Shown here: positions 1-36,504 of the stretch, one piece after another
Layout of the letters: every line of letters starts with the position of its first letter
How positions within the stretch are numbered: the first letter of the stretch is position 1
Notes under the pieces: model-generated
Told to the model about the DNA's origin: nothing
The model's database searches: none
The model's input: the letters and a program-made list of their open reading frames with translations, nothing else
NCBI RefSeq assembly: GCF_019599145.1
Contig: NZ_CP080647.1
Coordinates: forward strand, 7,998,001-8,062,000
DNA length: 64,000 nucleotides
Direction of reading: 5' to 3'
Source of the DNA: Streptomyces akebiae
Lineage (GTDB): Bacteria > Actinomycetota > Actinomycetes > Streptomycetales > Streptomycetaceae
Program-made: the position numbers and the translations under genes

Positions 1-33
1 GAGGTCGTCGACTGGTTCGACTCCGTCCTGTGA
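1..33 (+). CDS. 3' end of an upstream gene (partial)
   Basis: The first 33 bases read as an open frame ending EVVDWFDSVL and a TGA stop, with normal Streptomyces codon bias. This is probably the C-terminus of a gene that starts outside the window. Too little is visible to assign a family. It stops 35 bases before the next start codon, so the two genes could be co-transcribed. Confidence 0.4.
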   Translation, partial: EVVDWFDSVL

Positions 34-68
34 AGCACCCCACCCGCACGAGAAAGGAACCGCTCTCC

Positions 69-1181
69 ATGTCTCGTCGTACCGCTCTGGCCCTGGGCAC
101 CGCCCTGGCCCTCGGCACCGGTCTGGCCGTGCTCCCCACCCAGGCGCACGCCGCGACCGTGGTCGTCAGCAACTCCACCGACCTGGCCAACGCCATCAAG
201 AACGCCACCGCCGGCACCGTCATCCAGGTGCGCGGCGGCACGTACTACCCGACGGCGACCCTCCAGTCGACGGCCAACGGCACCTCCTCCAGCCGGATAC
301 ACCTCCAGCCGTACGGCTCGGAGACCGTGAAGATCGACGGCTCGAACCTCCCCGACGGCGACTGGATCTTCAAGCTGACCGCCGACTACTGGACCGTCTC
401 CGGGATCACCTTCCAGAACTCCCCGGACAGCGCGGTCGTCTGCCAGTCCTGCGCCTCCACGGTGTGGGACAACATCAAGACCATCAACGGCGGCGACTCC
501 GGCTTCACGCTCACCGGCGACAGCACCACCAACAACACCGTCCGCAACATCGACTCCTACGGCCACTACGACCCGGCCAACCACGGGGAGAACGCCGACG
601 GCATCGCCGTGAAGTACGGCTCAGGCAGCGGCAACCTCATCACCGGCGCCCGCCTCTACAACAACTCGGACGACGGCCTGGACTTCTGGTCCTTCTCCTC
701 GCCCGTCACCGTCGAGCACACCTGGGCGATGGGCAACGGCAAGAACCGCTGGGGGGACTCCGCGTTCGCCGGCGACGGCAACGGCTACAAGCTCGGCGGC
801 GACGGCGAGACCGTGGCCCACGTCATCAACAACTCGGCGGCCTGGGACAACGCGGGCAACGGCTTCACCGAGAACAGCAACAAGGGCGCCATCGTCATCA
901 ACCGCACCACCGCCTACGCCAACGCCAAGTGGGGCTACTACTTCGCCACCGGAGCGGCCCGCCTCGGCAAGAACCTGGCGGTGGGCAACGGCGGCGGCTC
1001 GGCCAACAAGGGTTCGTCCGTCGTGTCGTCCGGCAACAACTGGGACTCCGGCATCTCGACCCCGTCGTTCCGCTCCACCGACGCCTCCTCGACGTACAAC
1101 GCCCGTTCGTCGAGCGGCACCCTGCCCGCGACCACCTTCCTGACCACGGGCAGTACGACGATCGGCGCGACGATGAACTGA
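69..1181 (+). CDS. Secreted pectate lyase, PL9-like right-handed beta-helix
   Basis: Predicted secreted enzyme that cleaves polygalacturonate by beta-elimination with calcium. The start at 69 is preferred over the GTG at 30 because AGAAAGGA lies just upstream and it gives a clean signal peptide (about residues 1-28, ending AHA). The rest is a beta-helix of about 340 residues. PL9 hallmarks are visible: the acidic calcium-site cluster NADG (D177) and SDDGLDFW (D201, D202, D205), and GDGNGYKLGG with the likely catalytic lysine K241. Length (370 aa) fits a single-domain PL9 enzyme. It is closely related to the product of 5382-6536, so the two are paralogues flanking a lipase and a GH43 gene. Family is confident from motifs; substrate is inferred from the family. 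Confidence 0.85.
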   Translation: MSRRTALALGTALALGTGLAVLPTQAHAATVVVSNSTDLANAIKNATAGTVIQVRGGTYYPTATLQSTANGTSSSRIHLQPYGSETVKIDGSNLPDGDWIFKLTADYWTVSGITFQNSPDSAVVCQSCASTVWDNIKTINGGDSGFTLTGDSTTNNTVRNIDSYGHYDPANHGENADGIAVKYGSGSGNLITGARLYNNSDDGLDFWSFSSPVTVEHTWAMGNGKNRWGDSAFAGDGNGYKLGGDGETVAHVINNSAAWDNAGNGFTENSNKGAIVINRTTAYANAKWGYYFATGAARLGKNLAVGNGGGSANKGSSVVSSGNNWDSGISTPSFRSTDASSTYNARSSSGTLPATTFLTTGSTTIGATMN

Positions 1182-5381: not shown

Positions 5382-6536
5382 GTGCGTCAGACCTCTGGAC
5401 GCCACCGAAGAACCCGGACCCTGTCGATCGCCGCCGCCGTGTCCGTCGCCGCGGGGGCCGGCGGCGTCCACCTCGGCCTCACGCACGACGGTGCCCAGGC
5501 CGCCGCCACCACCGTCACCGTCTCCAGCACCGCGTCGCTGGAGGCGGCCGTGGCCGGCGCCCGAGCGGGTACGACGATCCAGGTCCGCGCCGGCACCTAC
5601 CGGCCGACGCGGACCCTGAAGTCCACCGCGAACGGCACCCCCTCCGCCCGGATCACGCTCACCGCTCTCCGCGGCGAGAAGGTCAGGATCGACGGGTCCG
5701 CGCTGCCCGCCGGCTCCTGGCTCGCCGGGATCTACGGCGACCACTGGACGGTCTCCGGCATCACCTTCCAGAACTCCCCGGCCCAGGGCCTGGTCGTCAC
5801 GTCCTCGGTCGGCGGGATCTTCGAGAACCTCGTGACCGCGAACAACGGCGACTCCGGCTTCACGCTGCGCGGTGACGGCACGACGGACAACCTCGTACGG
5901 AACCTGGACAGTCACGGCAACTACGACGCCGCGACCCACGGCCAGAACGCCGACGGCATCGCCGTGAAGTTCGGCTCCGGCACCGGCAACAGGATCACCG
6001 GAGCGCGCCTCTACGGCAACGCGGACGACGGCCTCGACCTCTGGCAGTTCTCCTCGTCCGTCACCATCGACCACTCCTGGGCCTTCGGCAACGGCAGGAA
6101 CCGCTGGAAGGACTCCGCGTTCGAGGGCAACGGCAACGGGTTCAAGCTGGGCGGCGGCGGGGCCTCGGTCGCGCACTCGGTCAACAACAACGCGGCCTGG
6201 GACAACACGCTGCACGGGTTCACCGAGAACTCCAACACCGGCGCGATCCTGCTGAACCGGAACACGGCGTACGGCAACAAGGCGACCGGGTTCTACTTCT
6301 CCACCGGCAAGGCCCGGCTGGCGCGGAACCTCGCGGTGGGCAACGGGACGGGGAAGGCGAAGCAGGGCTCCGCCACGGTCTCGGCAGCCAACAACTGGGA
6401 CAGCGGCATCACCACGCCGGCCTTCCGCTCGACGGACGCGGCCACCGCGTACGCCGCCCGGCGCACGGACGGGTCCCTGCCGATCACGACGTTCCTCACC
6501 ACGGGCTCCAAGGCCATCGGCGCGACGATGAACTGA
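5382..6536 (+). CDS. Secreted pectate lyase, PL9-like (second copy)
   Basis: 384-residue paralogue of the enzyme at 69-1181 with the same layout: a signal peptide (Arg-rich start, cleaved near residue 35-40), then a right-handed parallel beta-helix. The PL9 motifs recur: NADGIAVK, ADDGLDLW for calcium and GNGNGFKLGG with the catalytic lysine. The CQSCAS cysteine pair seen in the first copy is missing. The GTG start sits 8 bases after GAAAGGA. It has its own promoter region with a LacI-like palindrome and a structured leader, and a strong terminator follows. The two copies differ in codon choice, so the duplication is not recent. Confidence 0.85.
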   Translation: MRQTSGRHRRTRTLSIAAAVSVAAGAGGVHLGLTHDGAQAAATTVTVSSTASLEAAVAGARAGTTIQVRAGTYRPTRTLKSTANGTPSARITLTALRGEKVRIDGSALPAGSWLAGIYGDHWTVSGITFQNSPAQGLVVTSSVGGIFENLVTANNGDSGFTLRGDGTTDNLVRNLDSHGNYDAATHGQNADGIAVKFGSGTGNRITGARLYGNADDGLDLWQFSSSVTIDHSWAFGNGRNRWKDSAFEGNGNGFKLGGGGASVAHSVNNNAAWDNTLHGFTENSNTGAILLNRNTAYGNKATGFYFSTGKARLARNLAVGNGTGKAKQGSATVSAANNWDSGITTPAFRSTDAATAYAARRTDGSLPITTFLTTGSKAIGATMN

Positions 6537-6577
6537 CCCGCCGCGCGAGGCGGGAACGCGCAGGGGTGAGAAGAAGG

Positions 6578-6614
6578 CGCCCCCCGCCGGTCGTCACCGG
6601 CGGGGGGCGTTTTT
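6578..6614 (+). terminator. Rho-independent terminator after the second PL9 gene
   Basis: A 13-bp perfect GC stem (6578-6590 with 6597-6609) with loop TCGTCA is followed by TTTTT. It lies 41 bp after the PL9 stop codon. Confidence 0.85.
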
Positions 6615-6916
6615 CGTGCCGACCCCGAGGGGGGCTCCGGTCGGCACCGACTGCCGGCCGAGGGGGGCTCGGGCCGGCAGGTCCACGCAGTCGAACGAGG
6701 TGCCCGGACCGAGGAGGCCCGTGCCGCTCGAACCACTGACCATGTCGAGTGTCAGTACGTCGTACTCACTGGTGTTCGACTTCCACGCACTTGCAGGGAC
6801 GCCGTGGAGGAAGGTGGGGTTGTCCGCCCGGTACCGGCGAGACCCGGTTGTTGATGGATACCCGCGCCCGCCCTCCCGCGAACGCGCACGCTCCCCTCCC
6901 CTTCTTGGCGAGGGGC

Positions 6917-7747
6917 TCACTTGTAGGTGATGGCGGATGACGAGAACTTGCAGGTGGTCCCGTCCGCGCCGACGCCGATCCGGGTCGGCTCCTTGCCCGA
7001 GCTGTTGCCCTTGAAGCGCACGCAGGTCTTGACCTTCTTCTTCGGGTCGCCGTGGATGCGGATCTTCGACAGCGTCGCGGTGTCGCGGTAGTTGGCGTTC
7101 ACGCCGACGATCGCCTGCAGGGGCGCCACGACGTCGATGTCGCTCAGCACGATCGTGCGCTTGTACTGCTTCTTGCAGTTGCCGCAGGAGCGCACCAGCT
7201 TGCCGGAGTCCCGCACCCGGAAGCCGGTGATGCTGAGCCTGCCGGCGCCGTTGAACTGGAACACCTTGTCCGAGGCCTTCTTCGCGCCCCCGCCGATGAC
7301 CTTGTACACGGCCTTCGACGACGTGCCCTTGAAGCTGGCCGCGTCCTCGCCGACATCCAGCCACCACACGTTCTTCAGGGTGCAACTGCCCTTGCAGTGC
7401 ACCCCGTCCGCCCCCGGAAGACCGATGATCACGTTCTTGAGGACGGCACCGTCGGCCAGCTCGAAGACCGGGTCCTGCCCCTCGTCCTGGCCGCCGCCGC
7501 CGAGCGCGCCCTTGCCGAAGAACTTCCTCAGCTTGCCGTCGTAGGTGCCCTTCACCTCGATCGTCGAGGAGACGGCCTTGCTGCCCTTGGCCGTCGGCCA
7601 GGTGGCGGCGGCGTCGGCGGGGGACAGCAGCGACGTCGTGAAGAGCGCCCCGCCGGTGAGGGCGAGGGCGGCCACCGAGCCGATCACGGCCCTCCGGCCC
7701 GTGACCCGACGGCGGTGCCGGACGCGCTGCTCTGCAGGTGCGGTCAT
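6917..7747 (-). CDS. Secreted pectate lyase, PL3 family
   Basis: 276 residues from the ATG at 7747, chosen because GAGGGA precedes it; a longer frame upstream lacks coding character. An Arg-rich n-region (RVRHRRRVTGRRAVIG) and hydrophobic core give a Tat- or Sec-type signal peptide of about 47 residues. The mature part shows PL3 features: VFELADGAVLKNVIIG, DGVHCKGSCTLKNVWW, and GEDAASFKG with basic residues, with many cysteines as usual for the family. PL3 enzymes are calcium-dependent pectate lyases, complementing the two PL9 enzymes. Its upstream region carries the same leader blocks as the second PL9 gene. Confidence 0.85.
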   Translation of the reverse strand: MTAPAEQRVRHRRRVTGRRAVIGSVAALALTGGALFTTSLLSPADAAATWPTAKGSKAVSSTIEVKGTYDGKLRKFFGKGALGGGGQDEGQDPVFELADGAVLKNVIIGLPGADGVHCKGSCTLKNVWWLDVGEDAASFKGTSSKAVYKVIGGGAKKASDKVFQFNGAGRLSITGFRVRDSGKLVRSCGNCKKQYKRTIVLSDIDVVAPLQAIVGVNANYRDTATLSKIRIHGDPKKKVKTCVRFKGNSSGKEPTRIGVGADGTTCKFSSSAITYK

Positions 7748-25658: not shown

Positions 25659-26494
25659 GTGCGACCGACCCCGACACACCGCTCCAGCCGAAGCGCAAGG
25701 GCCTCAGCCGGAGCCGCAGGCGCGCCCTCTCGCGGGGCGCGCAGTACGCGCTGTTCGTCGCGGCCGTCGTCGCCTTCGCGGTGTCGGCCGACTGGGACCG
25801 GCTCAAGAACCAGTTCGCCCAGTGGGACATCGCCGAGCAGATGTTCCCCGACGTCATCACGCTGGCGCTGAAGAACACCGTCCTCTACACGCTGTCCGGC
25901 TTCGTGTTCGGCCTCGTCCTCGGCATGGTCATCGCGCTGATGCGGCTGTCGTCGGTGGGCCCGTACCGCTGGTTCGCCGGCGTGTACATCGAGATCTTCC
26001 GGGGCCTGCCCGCGCTGCTGATCTTCATCTTCATCGGCGTCGCCGTGCCGCTGGCCTTCCCCGGCACGGAGATCCCCGGCGGCACGTACGGCAAGGTGGC
26101 GCTCGCGCTCGGTCTGGTGGCCGCCGCGTACATGGCGGAGACGATCCGCGCGGGCATCCAGGCGGTCCCCAAGGGCCAGCTGGAAGCGGCCCGTTCCCTG
26201 GGCTTCTCGCCCGCCAGGGCGATGGTCTCGATCATCATCCCGCAGGCGTTCCGGATCATCCTGCCGCCGCTCACCAACGAACTGGTCCTGCTGTTCAAGG
26301 ACTCCTCGCTCGTCCTCTTCCTCGGTGTCACGCTGGAGGAGCGCGAACTGTCCAAGTACGGCCGTGACCTGGCCAGCACCACCGCCAACTCCACGCCGAT
26401 CCTGGTCGCCGGCCTGTGCTACCTGCTGGTGACCATCCCGCTCGGCTTCGTCGTGCGCCGTATGGAGGCGAAGGCCCAGGAGGCCGTGAAATGA
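25655..26494 (+). CDS. Amino-acid ABC transporter, permease
   Basis: 279 residues from the ATG at 25655, which overlaps the previous stop by 4 bp. HisM/GlnP-type permease: about five helices from 30 onward, the [19 protein letters not shown] segment and the EAA loop [29 protein letters not shown]. It would form a homodimer with the downstream ATPase to import polar amino acids. Confidence 0.9.
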
Positions 26495-27321: not shown

Positions 27322-28413
27322 ATGAGCGATGAGCCGGTGCTGCATGTGAAGGGCCGGGTCCTGGTCGGGCCCGACGACGTCCGGGACGAGCTGTGGGTGG
27401 TGGACGGTCGTGTCTCCTACGACCGTCCCGCCGCCGCCCGTGACATCCGCACGGTGGAGGGCTGGGCGCTGCCCGGCCTCGTCGACGCGCACTGCCACGT
27501 CGGCCTGGGCCCCGAGGGCCCGGTCGACGTCGACGAGGCGGAGAAACAGGCCCTCACCGACCGTGACGCGGGCACCCTCCTGATCCGCGACGCCGGCTCC
27601 CCCTCCGACACGCGCTGGACAGACGACCGCGACGACCTGCCGAACATCATCCGGGCCGGCCGCCACATCGCCCGCACGCGCCGCTACATCCGCAACTTCG
27701 CCCATGAGATCGAGCCGGACGAACTGGTCGCTTACGTCGCCCGGGAGGCCCGGCGCGGGGACGGCTGGGTGAAGCTGGTGGGGGACTGGATCGACCGGGG
27801 TCTGGGCGACCTGTCGCCGTGCTGGCCGCGGGAGGCGGTCGAGGCGGCGATCGCGGAGGCGCACCTGCTGGGCGCCCGCGTGACGGCCCACTGCTTCGCC
27901 GAGTCGTCCCTCCGCGACCTCGTCGAGGCGGGCATCGACTGCATCGAACACGCGACGGGCCTGACGGACGACCTGATCCCCCTCTTCGCCTCCCGAGGCG
28001 TCGCGATCGTCCCGACCCTGGTCAACATCGCCACCTTCCCGTCCATGGCGGCCGGCGGCGAGACCAAGTTCCCGACCTGGTCCGCCCACATGCGCCGCCT
28101 CCACGAACGCCGCTACGACACCGTGCGCAACGCCTATGACGCGGGCATCCCGGTCTACGTCGGCACGGACGCGGGCGGCTCCCTGGCCCACGGCCTGGTC
28201 GCCGCCGAGGTCGCCGAACTGGTCACCGCCGGTATCCCGCCGGTCGAGGCCCTCGCGGCGACCACCTGGCAAGCCCGCGAGTGGCTGGGCCGCCCCGGCC
28301 TGACCGAGGGCGCCCCGGCCGACCTGGTGCTGTACGAACGGGACCCCCGCACGGACGTACGCGTGCTCGGGGCCCCGTCGAGGGTGGTGCTCAACGGGCG
28401 GGTCGTGGGGTGA
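27322..28413 (+). CDS. Metal-dependent amidohydrolase
   Basis: 363 residues from the ATG at 27322 (a GTG at 27304 adds six). Amidohydrolase superfamily TIM barrel: HxH in DAHCHVG (H57, H59), VKLVGDW with a lysine that may be carbamylated (K151), TAHCF (H190), CIEHATG (H210) and GTDAGG (D283). Resembles imidazolonepropionase/prolidase-like members that cleave cyclic amides or dipeptides. It follows the amino-acid importer by 42 bp on the same strand, so it may process an imported compound (inference). Confidence 0.8.
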   Translation: MSDEPVLHVKGRVLVGPDDVRDELWVVDGRVSYDRPAAARDIRTVEGWALPGLVDAHCHVGLGPEGPVDVDEAEKQALTDRDAGTLLIRDAGSPSDTRWTDDRDDLPNIIRAGRHIARTRRYIRNFAHEIEPDELVAYVAREARRGDGWVKLVGDWIDRGLGDLSPCWPREAVEAAIAEAHLLGARVTAHCFAESSLRDLVEAGIDCIEHATGLTDDLIPLFASRGVAIVPTLVNIATFPSMAAGGETKFPTWSAHMRRLHERRYDTVRNAYDAGIPVYVGTDAGGSLAHGLVAAEVAELVTAGIPPVEALAATTWQAREWLGRPGLTEGAPADLVLYERDPRTDVRVLGAPSRVVLNGRVVG

Positions 28414-28503
28414 TCACGCTTGCGGCAGGCTTCTGACACGTGTGGATTCCCTTCGGGCCGGCCGGCCTCGAAGCCCAAGCCGCTCCCATGGGAGAATGAC
28501 CGC

Positions 28504-29130
28504 GTGATCGATCCCAAGAGTATTGATCTGACTGAATTCCTGGCCACTTGGTACGGCGCTCCTCGGCAGAGTGCGAAATCGCTACCAGATTCCTGTCATT
28601 GGCTCCCCAAGCCGCTCAAGGAATGGCATGAGTTGACCATGCGGTGGGACAGGAGAATCACGTACTCGACGTCGATGATTCCGCCGGAGCGAATCAACAT
28701 CGCCGACGACGGCAAGGCAATCTTCATGGTGGATGCAACGGGTGACTGGCGCTGGTGCATCGACCCGAACGACCCGGATGGCGTTTTTGATGCCGAGCTC
28801 TATGAGCCCTGGGAGAGAAATTCGGAAGGGCTTGCGGACTTTCTCGTGCATCATACCGTTCGAGAAGTTGTCTGCGGAGCTGCCGCCAGAGTGCGGGCGC
28901 TGTCTGTCGCTGACGACAAACTGGCAGAAATCCTTGCTTCACTGGAAGAAGTCGCGTTCGGAGCCTGGAAGTGGCCGGCGCCGGGTTACCGTATTTTCCT
29001 GGGTGGAACTGCGCTCGCGGAGATCGTCAAGGGCGGTTCCGGATCCGGCTGGGACGTAGAAGTGGTTTCACCGGACGTCGAAAATCTGTCCCGCTTCGAA
29101 GAAATTTCCGGAGTGCATTGGCGAACATGA
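28504..29130 (+). CDS. SMI1/KNR4 (SUKH)-like protein, candidate immunity protein
   Basis: 208 residues from the GTG at 28504 (GGGAG upstream). An N-terminal WLPKPLKEWHELTMRW helix, then NIADDGKAIFMVDATGDWRWCIDPNDPDGVFDAELYEPW, follow the pattern of SUKH-type proteins (leucine-proline helix, a W/E-rich beta core). A second helical-then-beta part (about 120-208) contains GLADFLVHHTVREVV. SUKH proteins are common immunity factors for polymorphic toxins, including deaminases. Base composition is visibly more AT-rich than the flanking amidohydrolase, suggesting acquisition. It is convergent with the Hint-deaminase reading frame, 74 bp apart, not downstream of it as immunity genes usually are. Immunity is therefore a hypothesis. 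Confidence 0.6.
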   Translation: MIDPKSIDLTEFLATWYGAPRQSAKSLPDSCHWLPKPLKEWHELTMRWDRRITYSTSMIPPERINIADDGKAIFMVDATGDWRWCIDPNDPDGVFDAELYEPWERNSEGLADFLVHHTVREVVCGAAARVRALSVADDKLAEILASLEEVAFGAWKWPAPGYRIFLGGTALAEIVKGGSGSGWDVEVVSPDVENLSRFEEISGVHWRT

Positions 29131-29155
29131 GGGCGTAGCAGGTTCGACGCAGAAA

Positions 29156-29188
29156 GAGGCCGGACCCGGGAAGTGCGGGTCCGGCCTC
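29156..29188. terminator. Bidirectional terminator between immunity candidate and toxin frame
   Basis: GAGGCCGGACCCG (29156-29168) pairs perfectly with 29176-29188 around a 7-base loop. T-rich DNA follows on the plus strand and AGAAA precedes it, giving Us on the minus transcript. It separates the convergent genes. Confidence 0.85.
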
Positions 29189-29204
29189 TTTTCTTTTCTT
29201 GCTG

Positions 29205-30029
29205 TCAGTTGGCGTTACCGATATATGGCCTTGACCGGAAGATGCTGCCGTCCAGCTGTCTGAACACAACGGTCAAGGAAGCGCCTGTCGGCAGCATGTC
29301 TTCCAATGTGCCGTTGCAGGCCCAGCAGACTTCTCGTGCGGCATTCGGGTCCCGGAAATTGATGTAGAGGGTTGAATTCCGCATCCCGGGATTCTGGCGC
29401 ATCAGCGCCGCTGCCTGAGCTTCCAGGTGATGTGCGTAGCCTGCCTTGGTTCCGGGCGCCGGATTTCCAGCGATGCCTGGATGGATGTTCCTGCCCCCTG
29501 AGGACAGCGGATCGGCAAACCATCCGAGCTCGTCCGAGCGGAGAGCGCCTGTGGCGCCTCCGGGGTAGGCGAAGTGATTGCCCGCCCGCTCGGCGGCCGC
29601 AAGCCCCGCCTCGTCGCAGTTGTGCGCGAGGACCGACGTGGCTCCAGCCAGCACATAGAACGTGTGCAGGCCCGCCACGGTCAGGTTGTGAACCGTCGCC
29701 TGCGCCTTGCGCGCCTTGACGGCCGTGATCTGGACCCAGCTGCCGCTGCCCGTGCTGAGCCACTGGCCACGCTTCAGGTCTCCGGCGTCCACCCAGCGGG
29801 CCAAGTCGGGGAGCCAGAACGGGTGGTTCTCCGTCGCCGTGATCGTGGACGTCTCGTCGCCCGCCCGGCCGTCCGTGTCGATCGTCAAGGTGACCAGATG
29901 CTTGGTGCCGTCGCCCTCGATCGTGCGTGTGACCGTCCGGGCCTGCGTGTCGTCCGTCTCCACGTCCGACGCTGTGACCTTGTCGCCGATCTCGATGTCC
30001 TCGATCGCCTTCGTGGAACCGTCGGCCAT
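29205..30029 (-). CDS. Hint domain plus DddA/SCP1.201-like cytosine deaminase toxin (C-terminal module of the RHS protein, other frame)
   Basis: 274 residues if read from the ATG at 30029, but the frame is open further and the true Hint domain starts at a cysteine at 30063-30065 (CKNSFVPGTKVLMADGS). The Hint part has TENHPFW (residues 66-72) and ends LAHNC (N137-C138), the self-cleavage site. The last 137 residues are a deaminase: AHHLEAQAAALMR (H201, E203) and CWACN (C235, C238) form the zinc site and general acid/base, followed by LEDMLPTGASLTVVF. This pattern is that of SCP1.201-like deaminases, the family of DddA, which deaminates cytosine in double-stranded DNA. Because an ATG start would lose the essential Hint cysteine, this is the C-terminus of the RHS protein, one base out of frame. 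Activity is inferred from motifs. Confidence 0.75.
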   Translation of the reverse strand: MADGSTKAIEDIEIGDKVTASDVETDDTQARTVTRTIEGDGTKHLVTLTIDTDGRAGDETSTITATENHPFWLPDLARWVDAGDLKRGQWLSTGSGSWVQITAVKARKAQATVHNLTVAGLHTFYVLAGATSVLAHNCDEAGLAAAERAGNHFAYPGGATGALRSDELGWFADPLSSGGRNIHPGIAGNPAPGTKAGYAHHLEAQAAALMRQNPGMRNSTLYINFRDPNAAREVCWACNGTLEDMLPTGASLTVVFRQLDGSIFRSRPYIGNAN

Positions 30030-33000
30030 CAGGACCTTGGTGCCGGGGACGAAGCTGTTCTTGCAGGGGGGCGGGGCGTCCGGGGGTTTCGGCGCGGCCG
30101 GGGCCGGGGCGTCGGCCGCCGGGGGGTTGGCGCCGCCTGTGGGGGTGCGTCCGCGGCGCCGGCCGGCGGGGGATCGGCGGCGCCGGCCGACGGCGGGTTC
30201 GCGCTGTTCGTCGGCGGTGTCGCCGCGCCGGACGGGACGTTGCGGCCGACGTCGCTCGCCGTGTCCAGCGCCTCCAGCGCCTCGTCCCCGTACTTGGCCA
30301 CCTTCGCCGCAGTCGCCCCGTACCCCGCGAACGGGATCGCCGAGGCGCAGGACAGGGCCGCGTCGACGTACTCGCCCTCGGCCGCGTACCAGCCGCAGTT
30401 GGCCAGGTCCGCCGCCTCGCCGACGACCGGGATCAGGCCGACCACGTCCAGGGCGGCGTGACCGATGTCGGACCAGGAAAGGCCGAACAGGTGGCCGTCG
30501 ATCTCGATGAAGGAGACCGGGTTGCCGCCGGCGAACGCGTAGCGGTTGCCGGTGTACGGGTCCATCGTCAGACCCATGTCGGCCAGGGCCCCGCCGTACA
30601 TGTCACGGGTCAGGAAGCGGTTCAGCCCGGGGTCGTACGTGCGGAAGCCCATGTCGTACGTGCCGGACGCCGTGTCGTAGCGCTTGGCGTTGAAGCGGTA
30701 CGAGTTGTAGGGCTCCGCGGCCTCGCCACCCGCCCCCGGCTTGTCCGCGCCCGTGAACTGAGCTGTGTCGTTCTTGCCGTACGCCGTGTAGCCGTAGGTG
30801 GTCTTGGTGTCGCCGTCCTTGTCGGTCAGCGCCTCCACGTCGCCGTGCGGGTGGTAGAGGTACTGCGTCGTCTCCGGGTCCGCGCCCGCATCGTCTTCCT
30901 CGTCCTTGATCTGGGTCAGCTTCTGGCCCCAGGAGGCGTACTGGAAGGACGTGACGCCTTCGTCGGTCACCTCCTCCTTCAGGGAGTTCGAGGTGATGCC
31001 CAGGTAGGTGAAGAGCGTGGTCTTCGCGTCGTCGCCGCTGCCGACCGTCTCCTTCACCGTGCGGTCGAACGCGTCGTACGTCAGACGGGTCGTCCGGGCC
31101 GCGTCACCGGCGCCCGAGGTGATCGACTCCGGGCGGTCGAAGCCGTCGTAGCGGTACTTCTGGATCGTCTCGCCGCCGAAGGAGACGGTGTCGAGGCGCC
31201 CGAGCGGGTCGTAGTTGTACGTGGACGACGCGCCGTCCTCCGTCGACGTCAGGAGACGGTTGCGGTCGTAGCGGTGGGTCGTCGTCGTGTCGTCGACCGT
31301 CTGCCGGACCACGTTGCCGGCCGCGTCGTGCCGGTACTCCTCCGTCTTCTCGTCGTCACCGGTCTTCGCGACCTTCGCGATGCGGTCCTGCGGGTCGTAC
31401 GTGTACGCGTACGTGTTGTCGATCGTGGAGCCGTGGTCGTCGGCGTCCATCAGCTTCAGGACGTCCTCGACCTTGTGGCCGTTGGCGTTGTACTTCAGGG
31501 CGTGCTCGGCGACGAGGGTGTCGTCGGACTGCCGCTCCGTGGTCCTCCTCGTCGCGCCGTCGAGGTAGTAGTCGACGGTCAGGACGTTGCCGTTCGGCTT
31601 CGTCTGCTTCGCCAGCTCGCCCCTGGCCGTGTACTCCACCGAGGTCACCTGGCGGTCGTCCGCCGTCGGCGACGCCGCGTTGGTGATGCGCTCGACCCGG
31701 TCCAGCTCGTCGTACTCCAGCTTGCTCCAGGTCAGGTCGTGGGTCGTCGTCAGCGTGTTGCCGTTGGCGTCGTACGTCAGCGCCGTCGTGTCGCGGACAC
31801 TGTCCCCGTCGCGCTCCACCACCTCGGTGAGCTGGTTGAGTTCGTCGTAGGCCAGGGTGTAGCGGTCGGTCTCGACGCCGGGGCTGTTGTCGACGATCTC
31901 GACCTGGTTGCCGTTGGCGTCGTAGCGGTAGGAGAAGTCCTTCTTCTCGTTGTCGGTGTCGCCCTCGTAGTCGCGCACCAGCCGCACCGCGTCCGCGACC
32001 ACCGTCCCGGTCGCCTTGTCGGTGAGGGTGATGGCCTGACCGGTGTCCTCGGCGAACGCGTACTTGCCCAGCGAGCGCCATTCACCGGGGAGTTCGCTCT
32101 GGTCGAGGGTCCTGGTCTCGGTGCCGTCCTTGTGCTTGATCTCGTACGCGGCGTCCTTCGCCGCCCCGTCGACCTTCGGGTGGCGGACGTAGACCGTGTA
32201 GTCGCCTGCCTGCGGGATCGTCAGCTGCCAGACGAAGCGGTCCTCGCCGGTACCCGGCGCGTGCGTCTGCGCGTCGTAGCCGTACGACCCCTCGGGGTCG
32301 ACCGCCGTCCACGTGCCCTGCTGCGCCGTGTTGTTGATGTCGCTGTTGTCGACTAGGGCGACCTGGAGGCCCACCGGTACCCCGTCGTCCGAACGGGACT
32401 TGAGGGCCCCACTCGGATAGAAGGAGGAGTTGAGGGTGCGGGAGAACGAACCGCCCGCGCTGCTCAGGGTGTTCTGGATCTGCTGGCCGAGGTCGTTGTA
32501 CCGGTAGGAGTTCCTGATGTCGAAGGCGTCGACCGACGTCCTGACCAAGCCGGTGTCGAAGTAGGTGTACTCCGTCTCGTTGCGGACGCTCTGTCCCTCG
32601 GACGGCGGGGCGCTGACCTTCTTCACCCGGCTCAGCGCGTCGTACTCGTACGTCGTGCGGTCGGGGGTGTTGTACCGGTCGTCGTCCGGGTCGAAGGGGC
32701 TCAGGGTCTCCTTGACGCGGTTCAGCTCGTCGTAGACGGTCTCGGAGGCGAAGTCCTTCGGGTCCTCGGTCTCCATACCGCGCGGGGTGACGGCCCGGGT
32801 CCGGTTGCCGACCTCGTCGTACTCGAAGCGGGTTCTGCGGATGACGCCGTCGTCGTGCGGGACCCGCGCCTCGGCCAGGGCGCCGCGGGCGTCGAGGACC
32901 AGGTCGGTGCGGTTGCCCTCGGCGTCGGTGGTGGCGGTGGTCAGACCGTCCCAGTCGTACGTGCTCGTCGTCGACTCGCCGATCGCGTCGGTCGTCTCCA

Positions 33001-36000
33001 GGAGCCGGTGGTCGAGGTCGTAGCGGAACCTGGTGGTGTAGTCGTCGGGGTCCTCGGTCTCGTTCTTGCGGGCGTCGACGACCTTCACCAGGTCACCGAC
33101 GTCGTTGTAGACGGCCGAGGCGCGCCTGCCCGCCGCGTTGACCGCCTCGATCGGCTGGTAGACCTCGTCGTACTTCGTGGTCGAGGTGAAGTCGCCGGGC
33201 GTGTCCGTCAGGTTGCCCTTCGGCTCCGTCGAGGTGAGCTGGTTGCCGACCTTGTCGTACGTGAAGGTCGACACCCGTGCCGGCGCACCCTCCTCGTCAC
33301 CGGGCTGGCTGGACTTCAGCAGCTGGTCGGCGGCGTCGAACTCGCTGGTGCTCGACACCCCGTTGGGGGCGGTGAAGACGAGCGTGTTGTCGTTCACGTC
33401 GTACTTCGGCGCGGGCGTGACGATGAACTCGCCCGCCTGCTGGTCCTTCGGCCTGCGGTTCTCCAGCGGACGCGCGAACACGTCGTACGTCTGCGTGGTC
33501 GTCGCCCCGTCGGCCTCCTCGACCTCGGTGACGTTGCCGCGTACGTCGTACGTCGTGGTCGTACGGTTGCCGAGGGCGTCGATGATCACCCGTGGATAGC
33601 CGGACGGGTCGTAGTCCTCGAACTTCGTCGTGTGTTCGTTGGGGTCGGTCGCCGAGACGAGCCGGCCCCGCGCGTCGTAGGCGTTGGTGGAGGTGTAGTC
33701 GTCCGCGGGCTCGCTCGCCACGCCGTTCGGGTCGGTGACCGAGGTCATGTTGCCGCGCGTGTCGTAGCCGAAGAGCCAGGTACGGCCCTCCGGGGAGACC
33801 CGGCGCACCAGGTCGGCGATGTAGCCGTTCTCACCGGTCGCGTAGGTGAGCGTGGCGGCGGGCCGGTCGTTCTTCACCGACTCCGCGTCCCGGCTCTCCA
33901 GCGGGTAGCCCGTCTTCGGGTCGTACTTCCAGGTGCGGGCGGCGCCGTTGTTCTCCTCCAGGCGCGTGACGTTGTTGTCGGCGTCCCAACCCAGCCTCGT
34001 GGTCCGCTTCTTGGCGTCGGTGAGCTTCACGGGACGGCCGTAGCCGTCCAGTCGCTGGGTGCTGGGGTTGCCCTCGGCGTCGGTGACGACCGTCTCGGTC
34101 CCCTTGCCGTCATGGCCGTCGGGGTCCTTGTAGCGGTACTTGGTCACACCGCCGAGCCGGTCCGTGACCGCCTTGGTGTACCCCAGGTAGTGCAGCTGGT
34201 CCTTGTCGTCGTGCGGGCCGACGTAGTCGACCTTCGAGGCGTTGCCCCGCGGGTCGGTGACCTCGACCAGTTTCACGCCGGGGTGGTCGAACTCCTTGCC
34301 GTACTCGAACGCGAAGACCTTGCGCAGCTTCTCCTCGGCATTCGCGCCGTCCGTCAGCCGTGCCAGCAGGCCCTTCTCGGTGAAGGTGAAATCGACACGC
34401 CGCCCCGAGACGTCGGTGACGGAGCGGACCTTGTCGACGATGAACGGGTTGAGGAGGTGCTTGCCCGTCTTGACCTCGCCGTCCTTGTCGACGTACGAGT
34501 ACGCCTCGCCCTTCTCCCAGTAGTCGATGCTGAGCGTGCGCCGGCCCTCGGCGTCGGTGACGTACTTCAGCAGCTTGGACGGGTGCCCGAGCAGTCGCTC
34601 CTCGTACGTGAACTCCATCCGGTTGCCGTTCTTGTCCACCTGGGCGCTCGGGTAGCCCTGGCAGTCGAAGAGGAACCGGGTGCGGTCCGGGCGCAGGAAC
34701 TCCCAGGCCTCGCGCTGGTGGGGGTGGAGCAGACAGTCCTTCTCCAGCTGCCTGACCCGGAAGTGGACGCCGGCGGGGGAGTCCCACTCGCCCTTCTTGT
34801 TCTTGCTGAAGACGTGGCTGGTGCCGTCGCCGTCGGTCAGCGTGATCTGCTTGGGCAGCAGCGCGGCCGGGTGGAAGTCCAGCGGCGTGCCCAGCCGGAC
34901 CGGCGAGGAGGCCTGCAGCGACCAGCCGAAACCGGCCGGAGTGCTGGACGCGTCCTGCGAGTTGTAGGCCAGCCGCAGGAAGGTCGAGAAGCCGAGCGAC
35001 GGGTTGGAGAAGGCGTTGTACGACCACACCGCGTTGCCCGCGTGAAGATTGCTCATCAGCGCCGAGCCCGCACCGGTGTTCTTGCCGGCGTACGAGTGGA
35101 AGTCCTCCAGACCGAGTTGGTCGGAGGTCGGGTACTCGGCGGTGACCTGGTGCTGGGAGGGCGGCACCCCGTCCGTCTCGGACAGCCAGTCGCCGGTGGC
35201 CTTCTCCCGCAGGTCCCACTCCAGGCCGAAGGTGAGCCGCTTGTCGAGCGGGTCGACCAGGACCGGGGCCTTGAGTTCCGCGTCGAAGGTCACCGTCTCG
35301 CCCGGCCGCACGTCCTCGGGCAGGGGTGTCGCGTCCTTGTTGAGAAGGTGGGTGACGTCCTTGCCGTCCAGCGTCCAGCGGTACGACAGGACGCGCTCGC
35401 CCTTCTTCCACACCGTGTCCGTGGTGTTGGTGAGGGCCGCCTCGACGGTGGCCTTCTCACCGGGGATCATCCGCGCCGGGGTGTACGGCAGGAAGTAGGT
35501 CTCCCCCTCGGGGGCGGCGAGCAGCTTCGCCCCTTCGGCGACCTGGCCCAGCGGCGGAAGTTCGACCGTGCGGGCGGGGCCGGCCAGCAGCCTGCCCTGC
35601 TGGGTGCGGACGACGATCCGGTAGTGGTAGGTCTTGCCCTTGGCCTTGCCCTTGCCCTTGGCCTGGCCCTTGCCGCCGCCGTCGAGCGCCGGGGGCGCCG
35701 TGCGGTCGGCGAAGGTCCGGGTGTCGCGGTCGACGGGGGCGAGCAGGGTCTCGTCGGTCGGGGTGAAGTCCTTCTTCGTGGCGCGGTGGACCTCGTACTC
35801 CCGCAGGTCCTTGCCCCGGTACGCGCTCCAGGCGAGGTCGGCGCCGGTGGCGTGCGTGGTACGGGGTGCGGCGATGCGGACGCTGTCGGCGTCGCCCGTG
35901 ACGCCGCGGTGGGTGAGGGAGGACGAGCCCCGTGAGCGGTCCAGGCCGATGCGGGGCGGCTTCGGGTCGTCGCCCCGGTCGATCTCCTCTCCGTCCTCGT

Positions 36001-36274
36001 CGTCGCCGAAGAGGCGCTCCAGGATGCCCGGGTCGTCCTCGTCCTCGTCCTCGGCGAGTTCGCTGGCGGGTCTCCAGCCCTCGCGGGGATCGCTGGTGTC
36101 GGGTTCGACCGCGGCCGCGGGTCTCTTCTCGCCGGTCGTGGCGGGGGTGGCGGGAGCGCCGCCGATGATCAGGGCCGTCGCCACGGTGCCGACCAGGGCG
36201 GCGCGGAGGCGGAATCGGCGCAGGCGGACGCGGCGGAGGCGGATACGGACGCGGGTGTGGTCTAAGGCTGCCAT
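30029..36274 (-). CDS. Secreted RHS/YD-repeat polymorphic toxin body (frameshifted before its Hint-toxin end)
   Basis: 2081 residues from the ATG at 36274 (AAGGAG 7 bases upstream). Layout: Arg-rich signal segment (1-45), acidic stretch (about 60-110), a fibronectin-III-like region with a KGQAKGKGKAKGK insert (about 140-250), then a shell-forming RHS part with dozens of YD repeats (Y-D-x2-G-N pattern) to about residue 1900. A golvesin/Xly-CBD-like domain sits inside the repeats (about 1300-1435; DYTVYVRHP to VVADAVRLV). The RHS core ends RTYDPGLNRFLTRDMYGG, followed by hydrophobic pre-toxin helices (LDVVGLIPVVGEAADLANC). The last ~45 residues (PTPRRPTPRPRPRR...) are out-of-frame Pro/Arg junk; shifting one base at the C5 tract 30141-30145 restores a Pro/Ala linker into the Hint-deaminase. 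Full fused length would be about 2356 residues. Confidence 0.85.
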   Translation of the reverse strand: MAALDHTRVRIRLRRVRLRRFRLRAALVGTVATALIIGGAPATPATTGEKRPAAAVEPDTSDPREGWRPASELAEDEDEDDPGILERLFGDDEDGEEIDRGDDPKPPRIGLDRSRGSSSLTHRGVTGDADSVRIAAPRTTHATGADLAWSAYRGKDLREYEVHRATKKDFTPTDETLLAPVDRDTRTFADRTAPPALDGGGKGQAKGKGKAKGKTYHYRIVVRTQQGRLLAGPARTVELPPLGQVAEGAKLLAAPEGETYFLPYTPARMIPGEKATVEAALTNTTDTVWKKGERVLSYRWTLDGKDVTHLLNKDATPLPEDVRPGETVTFDAELKAPVLVDPLDKRLTFGLEWDLREKATGDWLSETDGVPPSQHQVTAEYPTSDQLGLEDFHSYAGKNTGAGSALMSNLHAGNAVWSYNAFSNPSLGFSTFLRLAYNSQDASSTPAGFGWSLQASSPVRLGTPLDFHPAALLPKQITLTDGDGTSHVFSKNKKGEWDSPAGVHFRVRQLEKDCLLHPHQREAWEFLRPDRTRFLFDCQGYPSAQVDKNGNRMEFTYEERLLGHPSKLLKYVTDAEGRRTLSIDYWEKGEAYSYVDKDGEVKTGKHLLNPFIVDKVRSVTDVSGRRVDFTFTEKGLLARLTDGANAEEKLRKVFAFEYGKEFDHPGVKLVEVTDPRGNASKVDYVGPHDDKDQLHYLGYTKAVTDRLGGVTKYRYKDPDGHDGKGTETVVTDAEGNPSTQRLDGYGRPVKLTDAKKRTTRLGWDADNNVTRLEENNGAARTWKYDPKTGYPLESRDAESVKNDRPAATLTYATGENGYIADLVRRVSPEGRTWLFGYDTRGNMTSVTDPNGVASEPADDYTSTNAYDARGRLVSATDPNEHTTKFEDYDPSGYPRVIIDALGNRTTTTYDVRGNVTEVEEADGATTTQTYDVFARPLENRRPKDQQAGEFIVTPAPKYDVNDNTLVFTAPNGVSSTSEFDAADQLLKSSQPGDEEGAPARVSTFTYDKVGNQLTSTEPKGNLTDTPGDFTSTTKYDEVYQPIEAVNAAGRRASAVYNDVGDLVKVVDARKNETEDPDDYTTRFRYDLDHRLLETTDAIGESTTSTYDWDGLTTATTDAEGNRTDLVLDARGALAEARVPHDDGVIRRTRFEYDEVGNRTRAVTPRGMETEDPKDFASETVYDELNRVKETLSPFDPDDDRYNTPDRTTYEYDALSRVKKVSAPPSEGQSVRNETEYTYFDTGLVRTSVDAFDIRNSYRYNDLGQQIQNTLSSAGGSFSRTLNSSFYPSGALKSRSDDGVPVGLQVALVDNSDINNTAQQGTWTAVDPEGSYGYDAQTHAPGTGEDRFVWQLTIPQAGDYTVYVRHPKVDGAAKDAAYEIKHKDGTETRTLDQSELPGEWRSLGKYAFAEDTGQAITLTDKATGTVVADAVRLVRDYEGDTDNEKKDFSYRYDANGNQVEIVDNSPGVETDRYTLAYDELNQLTEVVERDGDSVRDTTALTYDANGNTLTTTHDLTWSKLEYDELDRVERITNAASPTADDRQVTSVEYTARGELAKQTKPNGNVLTVDYYLDGATRRTTERQSDDTLVAEHALKYNANGHKVEDVLKLMDADDHGSTIDNTYAYTYDPQDRIAKVAKTGDDEKTEEYRHDAAGNVVRQTVDDTTTTHRYDRNRLLTSTEDGASSTYNYDPLGRLDTVSFGGETIQKYRYDGFDRPESITSGAGDAARTTRLTYDAFDRTVKETVGSGDDAKTTLFTYLGITSNSLKEEVTDEGVTSFQYASWGQKLTQIKDEEDDAGADPETTQYLYHPHGDVEALTDKDGDTKTTYGYTAYGKNDTAQFTGADKPGAGGEAAEPYNSYRFNAKRYDTASGTYDMGFRTYDPGLNRFLTRDMYGGALADMGLTMDPYTGNRYAFAGGNPVSFIEIDGHLFGLSWSDIGHAALDVVGLIPVVGEAADLANCGWYAAEGEYVDAALSCASAIPFAGYGATAAKVAKYGDEALEALDTASDVGRNVPSGAATPPTNSANPPSAGAADPPPAGAADAPPQAAPTPRRPTPRPRPRRNPRTPRPPARTASSPAPRS

Positions 36275-36504
36275 GAAGGGCTCCTTGTTCCCCGTGAGCA
36301 CAGGGGTCGCACAGGAATCGCCGGGCGCAACTGTCTACCAAGGCCCCCCAAAGCCATGTCAACGACATGTCAAATGAAGGGGCGAGTTCCGGACTGCGAA
36401 CGTTGCGAAGAAGTCCTGTACGGACCGGTGGGGTGGTGTGAAGCCGCGTAAGCGGGTCGGCCGGATCCGGTCACCGGGTCAACGGCCTTTCTGTGTCAGG
36501 GCTG

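What the first reader, a model, noticed from the sequence alone, without database searches (positions are those of the whole stretch)
29205..30065. DddA/SCP1.201-like deaminase at the tip of an RHS-Hint toxin
After a Hint domain ending HNC, the last 137 residues carry AHHLEAQAAALMR and CWACN, matching the H-x-E ... C-x-x-C zinc/catalytic pattern and the GQ-AALFMR-like helix of DddA-type deaminases, followed by an LEDMLPTGASLTVV strand like DddA's ETLLPENAKMTVV. DddA deaminates cytosine in double-stranded DNA, a rare and technically important activity. This would be a Streptomyces member delivered by a giant secreted RHS shell. The motif match is seen; dsDNA activity is inference, since the family also contains ssDNA-active members.
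Basis: partly seen in the sequence, partly recalled or inferred. Interest (0 to 1): 0.85.

Follow-up and report, generated by a model that had tools for sequence, protein, structure and literature searches.

The report
DNA-deaminase tip of RHS toxin
A soil bacterium carries the tip of a modular anti-bacterial toxin that very probably mutates DNA like the base-editing enzyme DddA, next to what looks like a new kind of antidote gene, but the gene for the delivery shell has slipped out of frame with it.

Summary
Window 29208-29618(-) encodes a 137-aa Pfam DddA-like domain (PF14428; 43 bits, cut-off 25) with HxE and CxxC intact; its confident model ranks DddA/TOD structures first. It follows a Hint domain in an RHS polymorphic-toxin locus.

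(1) The 2,090-aa RHS frame and the Hint-deaminase frame differ, switching in a Pro/Ala linker; all 17 carrier homologues tested are in one frame, so this copy is frameshifted or mis-sequenced. (2) A convergent 208-aa gene (28504-29127,+) without Pfam or NCBIfam match is the likely immunity gene: homologues sit beside all 11 tips of its tree clade, and beside none of the other 19 DddA-like rows in 295 genus genomes. (3) In three syntenic relatives the 1.2-kb tip-plus-immunity segment is replaced as a block by other cassettes, one a different DddA-like tip with Imm1.

dsDNA activity is open: the position of DddA's intercalating Phe1375 is Ala and the SPKK-type tail is absent, yet the fold is nearest DddA. 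Verdict: a real DddA-family member in a new variant (HLE tip, uncurated immunity family) of a known toxin kind.

The parts
29208..29618 (-). Deaminase tip, 137 aa (stop codon 29205-29207), PF14428 DddA-like
29421..29429 (-). H64-L65-E66: zinc His and catalytic Glu (HLE, not HVE)
   Evidence: aligned to DddA H1345/E1347; residue table
29316..29327 (-). C98-W99-A100-C101: zinc CxxC; A100 aligns with DddA Phe1375
   Evidence: alignment; role of Phe1375 from PMC10442228
29619..30065 (-). PT-HINT domain, from Cys (30063-30065) to HN before the tip Cys
   Evidence: PF07591 E 2.2e-19; reading
30029..36301 (-). RHS carrier ORF, 2,090 aa: export-like hydrophobic N-terminus (by eye), RHS/YD repeats, Golvesin_C, RHS core; its TGA stop (30029-30031) overlaps the first ATG (30027-30029) of the Hint frame
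30068..30245 (-). Pro/Ala linker zone in which the reading frame switches between RHS and Hint (no single base named)
   Evidence: GC3 frame plot switch about 30120-30190; net frame change against 3 of 3 syntenic relatives; 17 of 17 carrier homologues tested in one frame
28504..29130 (+). Candidate immunity gene, 208 aa, GTG start, convergent with the toxin
   Evidence: homologues beside all 11 tips of the clade; no Pfam hit at E<=10 for 7 of 7 members, no NCBIfam hit at E<=1e-3 for this one; AF2 pLDDT 90.8
29152..29192 (.). 17-bp hairpin with T-run between the two convergent stop codons (74 bases apart): likely terminator
   Evidence: 1 found; 0.5 expected in shuffles; fold z-score -3.92, 0 of 200 shuffles as stable
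28414..29614 (.). Exchange cassette (immunity gene + tip): synteny with three relatives breaks and resumes at these borders; G+C 60%
   Evidence: alignments end at 28406/28413/28419 and resume at 29615/29615/29617; GC

Best explanation
This is a polymorphic-toxin locus of an RHS/Hint carrier whose current tip is a DddA-family zinc-dependent cytosine deaminase, paired with its own immunity gene on the opposite strand as one exchangeable cassette. Likely mechanism (inferred from the families): the RHS protein is exported, the Hint domain cuts at HN|C to free the 137-aa tip, and the tip enters competing cells and deaminates cytosine in DNA to uracil. Glu66 is the proton shuttle and His64, Cys98 and Cys101 hold zinc. 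The 208-aa convergent protein binds and blocks the tip in the producer. Shown here: domain identity, catalytic residues, fold, pairing with the neighbour gene, cassette swapping. In this genome the carrier frame does not continue into Hint + tip. So the weapon is probably disabled, or the tip is made only as an undelivered Hint-tip fragment by reinitiation at the TGATG overlap, which would lack the Hint start Cys. The immunity gene would remain useful. Inferred: export, cleavage, DNA target, inhibition.
For: Profiles; PDB sequence and fold matches to DddA/TOD; catalytic residues conserved; purifying selection on tip (dN/dS about 0.10) and neighbour gene (about 0.20) against CBMA29. All 11 tips of the tree clade have the immunity homologue next door, 9 convergent and 2 same-strand; one change on the tip tree, 0 of 500 shuffles as low. 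81%-identical tip on a very different RHS carrier in CBMA29, and other tips on the orthologous carrier in G248, G228 and G254. Frame switch. Family precedent in Streptomyces: the UmbC1 deaminase (PDB 8w20) causes C:G to T:A mutations and pairs with an Imm1 protein (PMC11062931, passages).
Confidence: 0.82

Rival explanations
1. The tip is a true dsDNA deaminase like DddA.
For: Nearest solved sequences and folds are DddA and TOD dsDNA deaminases. CxxC spacing like DddA, while other Streptomyces tips aligned have 5 or 8 residues between the Cys (one clade member, L027, also has 5). A Streptomyces homologue (sp. BK438, Q2L7) is active on dsDNA (PMC10587121). 8 of 10 proteins with DddA-like cores may edit dsDNA (Huang et al. 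as summarised in PMC10847098).
Against: DddA's intercalating Phe1375 is Ala100; wedge partners Ala1341/Met1379 are Gly60/Thr104 (alignment; PMC10442228). The tip ends level with DddA residue 1417, so no SPKK-type tail; 4 of 4 tested homologues without such motifs had little or no dsDNA activity (PMC9935910 section 7). HLE instead of HVE.
Confidence: 0.4
2. The tip is a ssDNA cytosine deaminase (Sdd type of the same Pfam family).
For: Loss of wedge and tail residues as above. 45 of 76 SCP1.201 proteins gave a signal in the ssDNA-type reporter, and many acted on ssDNA rather than dsDNA (Huang et al. as summarised in PMC10847098, passages).
Against: By sequence, fold and Cys spacing it lies nearer DddA than the other Streptomyces tips do.
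Confidence: 0.4
3. The frame switch is only a sequencing/assembly error and the toxin is one intact protein.
For: It lies in a linker of G/C homopolymers; 17 of 17 homologues tested are in frame.
Against: It is the only net frame change inside a gene against the nearest syntenic genome among 45 coding-like ORFs of the window; the assembly has 2 contigs.
Confidence: 0.35
4. The linker is a slippage-prone contingency site: the strain can switch delivery of the deaminase on and off (phase variation or slipped translation).
For: Runs of G/C in the linker; the Hint frame keeps coding-type GC3.
Against: No out-of-frame copy among 17 homologues tested; no population data.
Confidence: 0.07
5. Dead remnant: a silenced tip kept only with its immunity gene as an orphan cassette.
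For: Carrier out of frame; truncated or stop-bearing DddA-like tips occur repeatedly in the genus.
Against: Tip and catalytic residues intact, dN/dS about 0.10 against CBMA29, though that mostly reflects the time before the break.
Confidence: 0.4

Closest known systems
DddA of Burkholderia cenocepacia (PDB 6u08, 8e5d/e)
   Same: PF14428 deaminase fold, HxE and CxxC, LP-x-x-A-x-(L/M)-T-V-V strand; tip ends in GNAN level with DddA Asn1415/Asn1417 (residue numbers from PMC10442228)
   Different: About 27% identity; HLE; Ala in place of Phe1375; no SPKK-type tail; RHS/Hint carrier instead of a T6SS effector; neighbour gene with no Pfam family
UmbC1/UmbD1 of Streptomyces coelicolor (PDB 8w20; PMC11062931)
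   Same: Streptomyces polymorphic toxin with a DddA-like C-terminal deaminase and an adjacent immunity gene
   Different: ALF-repeat umbrella particle, not RHS; longer spacing between the two zinc Cys (alignment); immunity is Imm1, immediately downstream
DddA homologue Q2L7 of Streptomyces sp. BK438 (PMC10587121)
   Same: Streptomyces, HxE/CxxC, helix at the N-terminus of the model as here; none of the five matched DddIA proteins was for it (paper, sections 6 and 10)
RHS toxins with exchangeable tip/immunity pairs (e.g. Serratia Rhs NADase effectors, PMC10539506, search listing only)
   Same: RHS toxins and immunity proteins described there as exchangeable
   Different: Actinobacterial RHS with Hint; immunity gene convergent here

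Membership tests
PF14428 DddA-like (SCP1.201-like, BaDTF1) deaminases | Profile score above curated cut-off | tested here: met
   42.8 bits vs 25; 43.3 bits in the own genome
PF14428 DddA-like (SCP1.201-like, BaDTF1) deaminases | HxE plus CxxC zinc/catalytic residues | tested here: met
   H64, E66, C98, C101 aligned to DddA and conserved
PF14428 DddA-like (SCP1.201-like, BaDTF1) deaminases | Deaminase fold closest to DddA | tested here: met
PF14428 DddA-like (SCP1.201-like, BaDTF1) deaminases | The four residues in one zinc site | not testable with these tools
   Model coordinates not available to scripts
dsDNA-active DddA subgroup | Aromatic minor-groove wedge (Phe1375) | tested here: not met
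   Ala100 at that column; Tyr there in G070 and G130
[quoted passage not shown]
   Tip ends level with DddA residue 1417; no [ST]P in its last 20 residues
dsDNA-active DddA subgroup | dsDNA deamination | not testable with these tools
   needs an assay
RHS/Hint polymorphic toxin | RHS/YD repeats, RHS core, PT-HINT, variable tip | tested here: met
   tip swapped at the orthologous locus
RHS/Hint polymorphic toxin | One open frame from RHS to tip | tested here: not met
   frame switch in linker
RHS/Hint polymorphic toxin | Adjacent cognate immunity gene | tested here: met
   adjacency in 11 of 11 clade loci; that it confers immunity is untested
Imm1 (PF14430) immunity proteins | Pfam match of the neighbour gene | tested here: not met
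   0 Pfam families at E<=10 for 7 of 7 members; 0 NCBIfam at E<=1e-3 for the window's member; control: the G248 neighbour does hit Imm1, E 5.7e-9
SUKH (SMI1/KNR4) immunity superfamily | SUKH fold | tested here: inconclusive
Umbrella (Umb) toxin particles | ALF repeats in the carrier | tested here: not met
   Pfam scan of the carrier lists only RHS_repeat and Golvesin_C at E<=1e-3

The most novel reading that the evidence does not exclude
The HLE/CxxC Streptomyces lineage is a DNA cytosine deaminase that works on duplex DNA without DddA's Phe wedge and SPKK tail (perhaps with Trp99 doing that work), held in check by a new immunity fold encoded tail-to-tail. In this strain delivery is gated by a slippage-prone linker.
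Probability: 0.1. Interest if true: 0.75.

Novelty: new variant of a known kind. Interest (0 to 1): 0.5.

Why it matters
DddA-like enzymes drive CRISPR-free organelle base editing. The screen in PMC10587121 kept only homologues with HVE and CxxC (64 of 531), so HLE members like this one were outside it. A deaminase that keeps the catalytic site but lacks the known dsDNA wedge and tail would help separate what makes these enzymes act on duplex DNA. The paired neighbour family has no Pfam match (7 of 7 members) and no NCBIfam match (the member scanned) and could be a new inhibitor class. The four-genome comparison shows toxin tip and neighbour gene exchanged together with borders sharp to about 15 bases, and a weapon decoupled from its shell beside an intact immunity gene.

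Tried and rejected
Considered and dropped. (a) Plus-strand reading of the coordinates: stops. (b) Programmed frameshift as a family trait: 17 of 17 homologues tested in frame. (c) Imm1 as the immunity family: no profile hit (NCBIfam). (d) A known PDB fold for the immunity protein: no Foldseek hit at E 0.001 or below; VIA second look weak. (e) Plasmid carriage: no tblastn match for tip or immunity protein in PLSDB (records very near the own genome may be left out there). (f) PADLOC: no hits at E<=1. (g) The immunity family outside the genus: 2 of 396 genomes of the phylum sample at E<=1e-10, both of the own genus.

Rows left out. Tip tree: 20 tips of 30 found (29 rows plus CBMA29); left out were fragments, stop-bearing copies and one duplicate (L008-L011, L014, L021, L025, L026, L028, L029). 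L014 (G113) has a CxxC and looks like the clade by eye, but has no immunity homologue in its fetched 15 kb. The tree includes near-copies, the branch that separates the group has support 79/71, and the tool warns of long branches (L019/G130 among them). Strong immunity loci are those with E<=1e-40 (13 loci in 12 genomes); the other 29 of 41 genomes have only weaker matches, many inside longer ORFs, and were not counted. Frame test: the first 18 of the 30 loci (L066-L083; own copy excluded = 17), plus L030 and L006, which repeat two of them; CBMA29 could not be tested that way, but its ORF is open from carrier to tip. Genes were called by a GC3 rule, clusters within 60 bases of a gene end were not counted, the Hint-tip and immunity ORFs are not among the 45, some ORFs do not align in every relative, and at least one call (25885-26394) looks spurious.

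Full report

THE FRAME BREAK. The RHS ORF 30029-36301(-), 2,090 aa, carries RHS/YD repeats, an RHS core and a Golvesin_C domain. It does not read into Hint: it ends at a TGA (30029-30031) inside the Hint coding region, while the Hint-tip frame has its first ATG at 30027-30029. Third-position G+C is 90-98% in the RHS frame down to about 30180 and 90-97% in the Hint frame from about 30120 to 29670, so both pieces look like genuine coding sequence that switches frame in the Pro/Ala linker. Of the first 18 loci of the carrier search, the own copy is out of frame and 17 of 17 others are in one frame from RHS to Hint. Against the nearest syntenic genome (G248, about 91-95% identical DNA over most of the window), this linker is the only net frame change found inside any of 45 coding-like ORFs. 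The same zone shows up against G228 and G254, and G254 shows one further change in another gene. That speaks for a real mutation rather than a noisy assembly, but a G/C-rich linker is also where reads fail most easily. I do not say which change would restore the frame; intact copies exist in relatives.

CASSETTE EXCHANGE. Against G248, G228 and G254 the neighbourhood is syntenic, but alignment stops at 28419/28406/28413 and resumes at 29617/29615/29615: from the end of the neighbouring amidohydrolase gene to the last codons of Hint. In that slot G248 has a different PF14428 tip (5 residues between the Cys; 36% identical to ours over 78 residues) with an Imm1 gene (E 5.7e-9), G254 a GIY-YIG tip (E 7.7e-5), G228 a tip without Pfam match. 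Conversely CBMA29 carries our tip (81%) and immunity gene (70%) on an RHS carrier only about 23-24% identical to ours in the matched stretches. The slot is 60% G+C against 73% in the amidohydrolase gene, 67% in Hint and 69% in the RHS ORF. Tip and immunity gene therefore travel together.

DOES IT ACT ON dsDNA? DddA inserts Phe1375 into the duplex with Ala1341 and Met1379 beside it (PMC10442228). By the alignment these are Ala100, Gly60 and Thr104 here. A neighbouring Trp99 might substitute, which I could not test. The tip ends level with DddA residue 1417, without a tail; PMC9935910 reports that SPKK-related C-terminal motifs are needed by DddA, and that 4 of 4 tested homologues without them had little or no activity on dsDNA. 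Huang et al., as summarised in PMC10847098 (passages), found 45 of 76 SCP1.201 proteins positive in an ssDNA-type reporter, many acting on ssDNA rather than dsDNA, but also 8 of 10 proteins with DddA-like cores with likely dsDNA editing. In PMC10587121 only homologues with HVE and CxxC were tried, and 7 of 28 were active on dsDNA. So cytosine deamination of DNA is likely, and duplex against single-strand activity is about even, both by inference.

RELATION TO KNOWN SYSTEMS. SCP1.201 deaminase tips with Imm1 or Imm4, RHS and HINT carriers, and Imm-SUKH among deaminase partners are all in Zhang et al. 2012 (PMC3482391, passages). DddA is placed in the SCP1.201-like subfamily in PMC7901873 (passages). 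A Streptomyces deaminase toxin with measured C:G to T:A mutagenesis exists (UmbC1, PDB 8w20, PMC11062931, passages). Streptomyces sp. BK438 has a dsDNA-active homologue (PMC10587121, abstract, sections 6 and 10, passages). In that paper none of the five DddIA proteins matched was for the BK438 enzyme, and its model, like ours, starts with a helix; that it may use the immunity family described here is a lead, not a test. I noticed no paper on this tip or this immunity family in the listings of searches of the held open-access library, of which I opened eight papers in part.

ORGANISM.

Noticed in passing
window 30-1181 (+) and 5382-6536 (+): Two genes about 74% alike (each aligns to the other's place in the relatives) lie 4 kb apart at the window's start: paralogues.
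   Followed up: no
L048-L061 (e.g. L050:1483-2730 -): Longer open frames (239-899 codons, many 370-500) in other Streptomyces hold a domain weakly similar to the immunity protein (E about 1e-14 to 1e-22); the two scanned (L048, L050) have no Pfam match at E<=1.
   Followed up: partly
G113:C11:13057-22867 (L014, L026, L028): Three degenerate DddA-like tips, two with in-frame stops, within 10 kb: a graveyard of tips.
   Followed up: no
L114:7314-8072 and L115: Copies of the immunity family without a PF14428 tip beside them (L115's is split over two frames); in L114 an ORF that by eye resembles Imm1 lies next to it on the other strand.
   Followed up: partly
L035 (Streptomyces sp. CBMA29), Hint region about 6416-6997: The Hint domain of the very different carrier holds an inserted hydrophobic, Ala-rich segment.
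   Followed up: no
window 30029-36301 (-), residues 1316-1443 of the ORF: A Golvesin C-terminal domain sits inside the RHS carrier (PF25275 E 5.7e-35).
   Followed up: no
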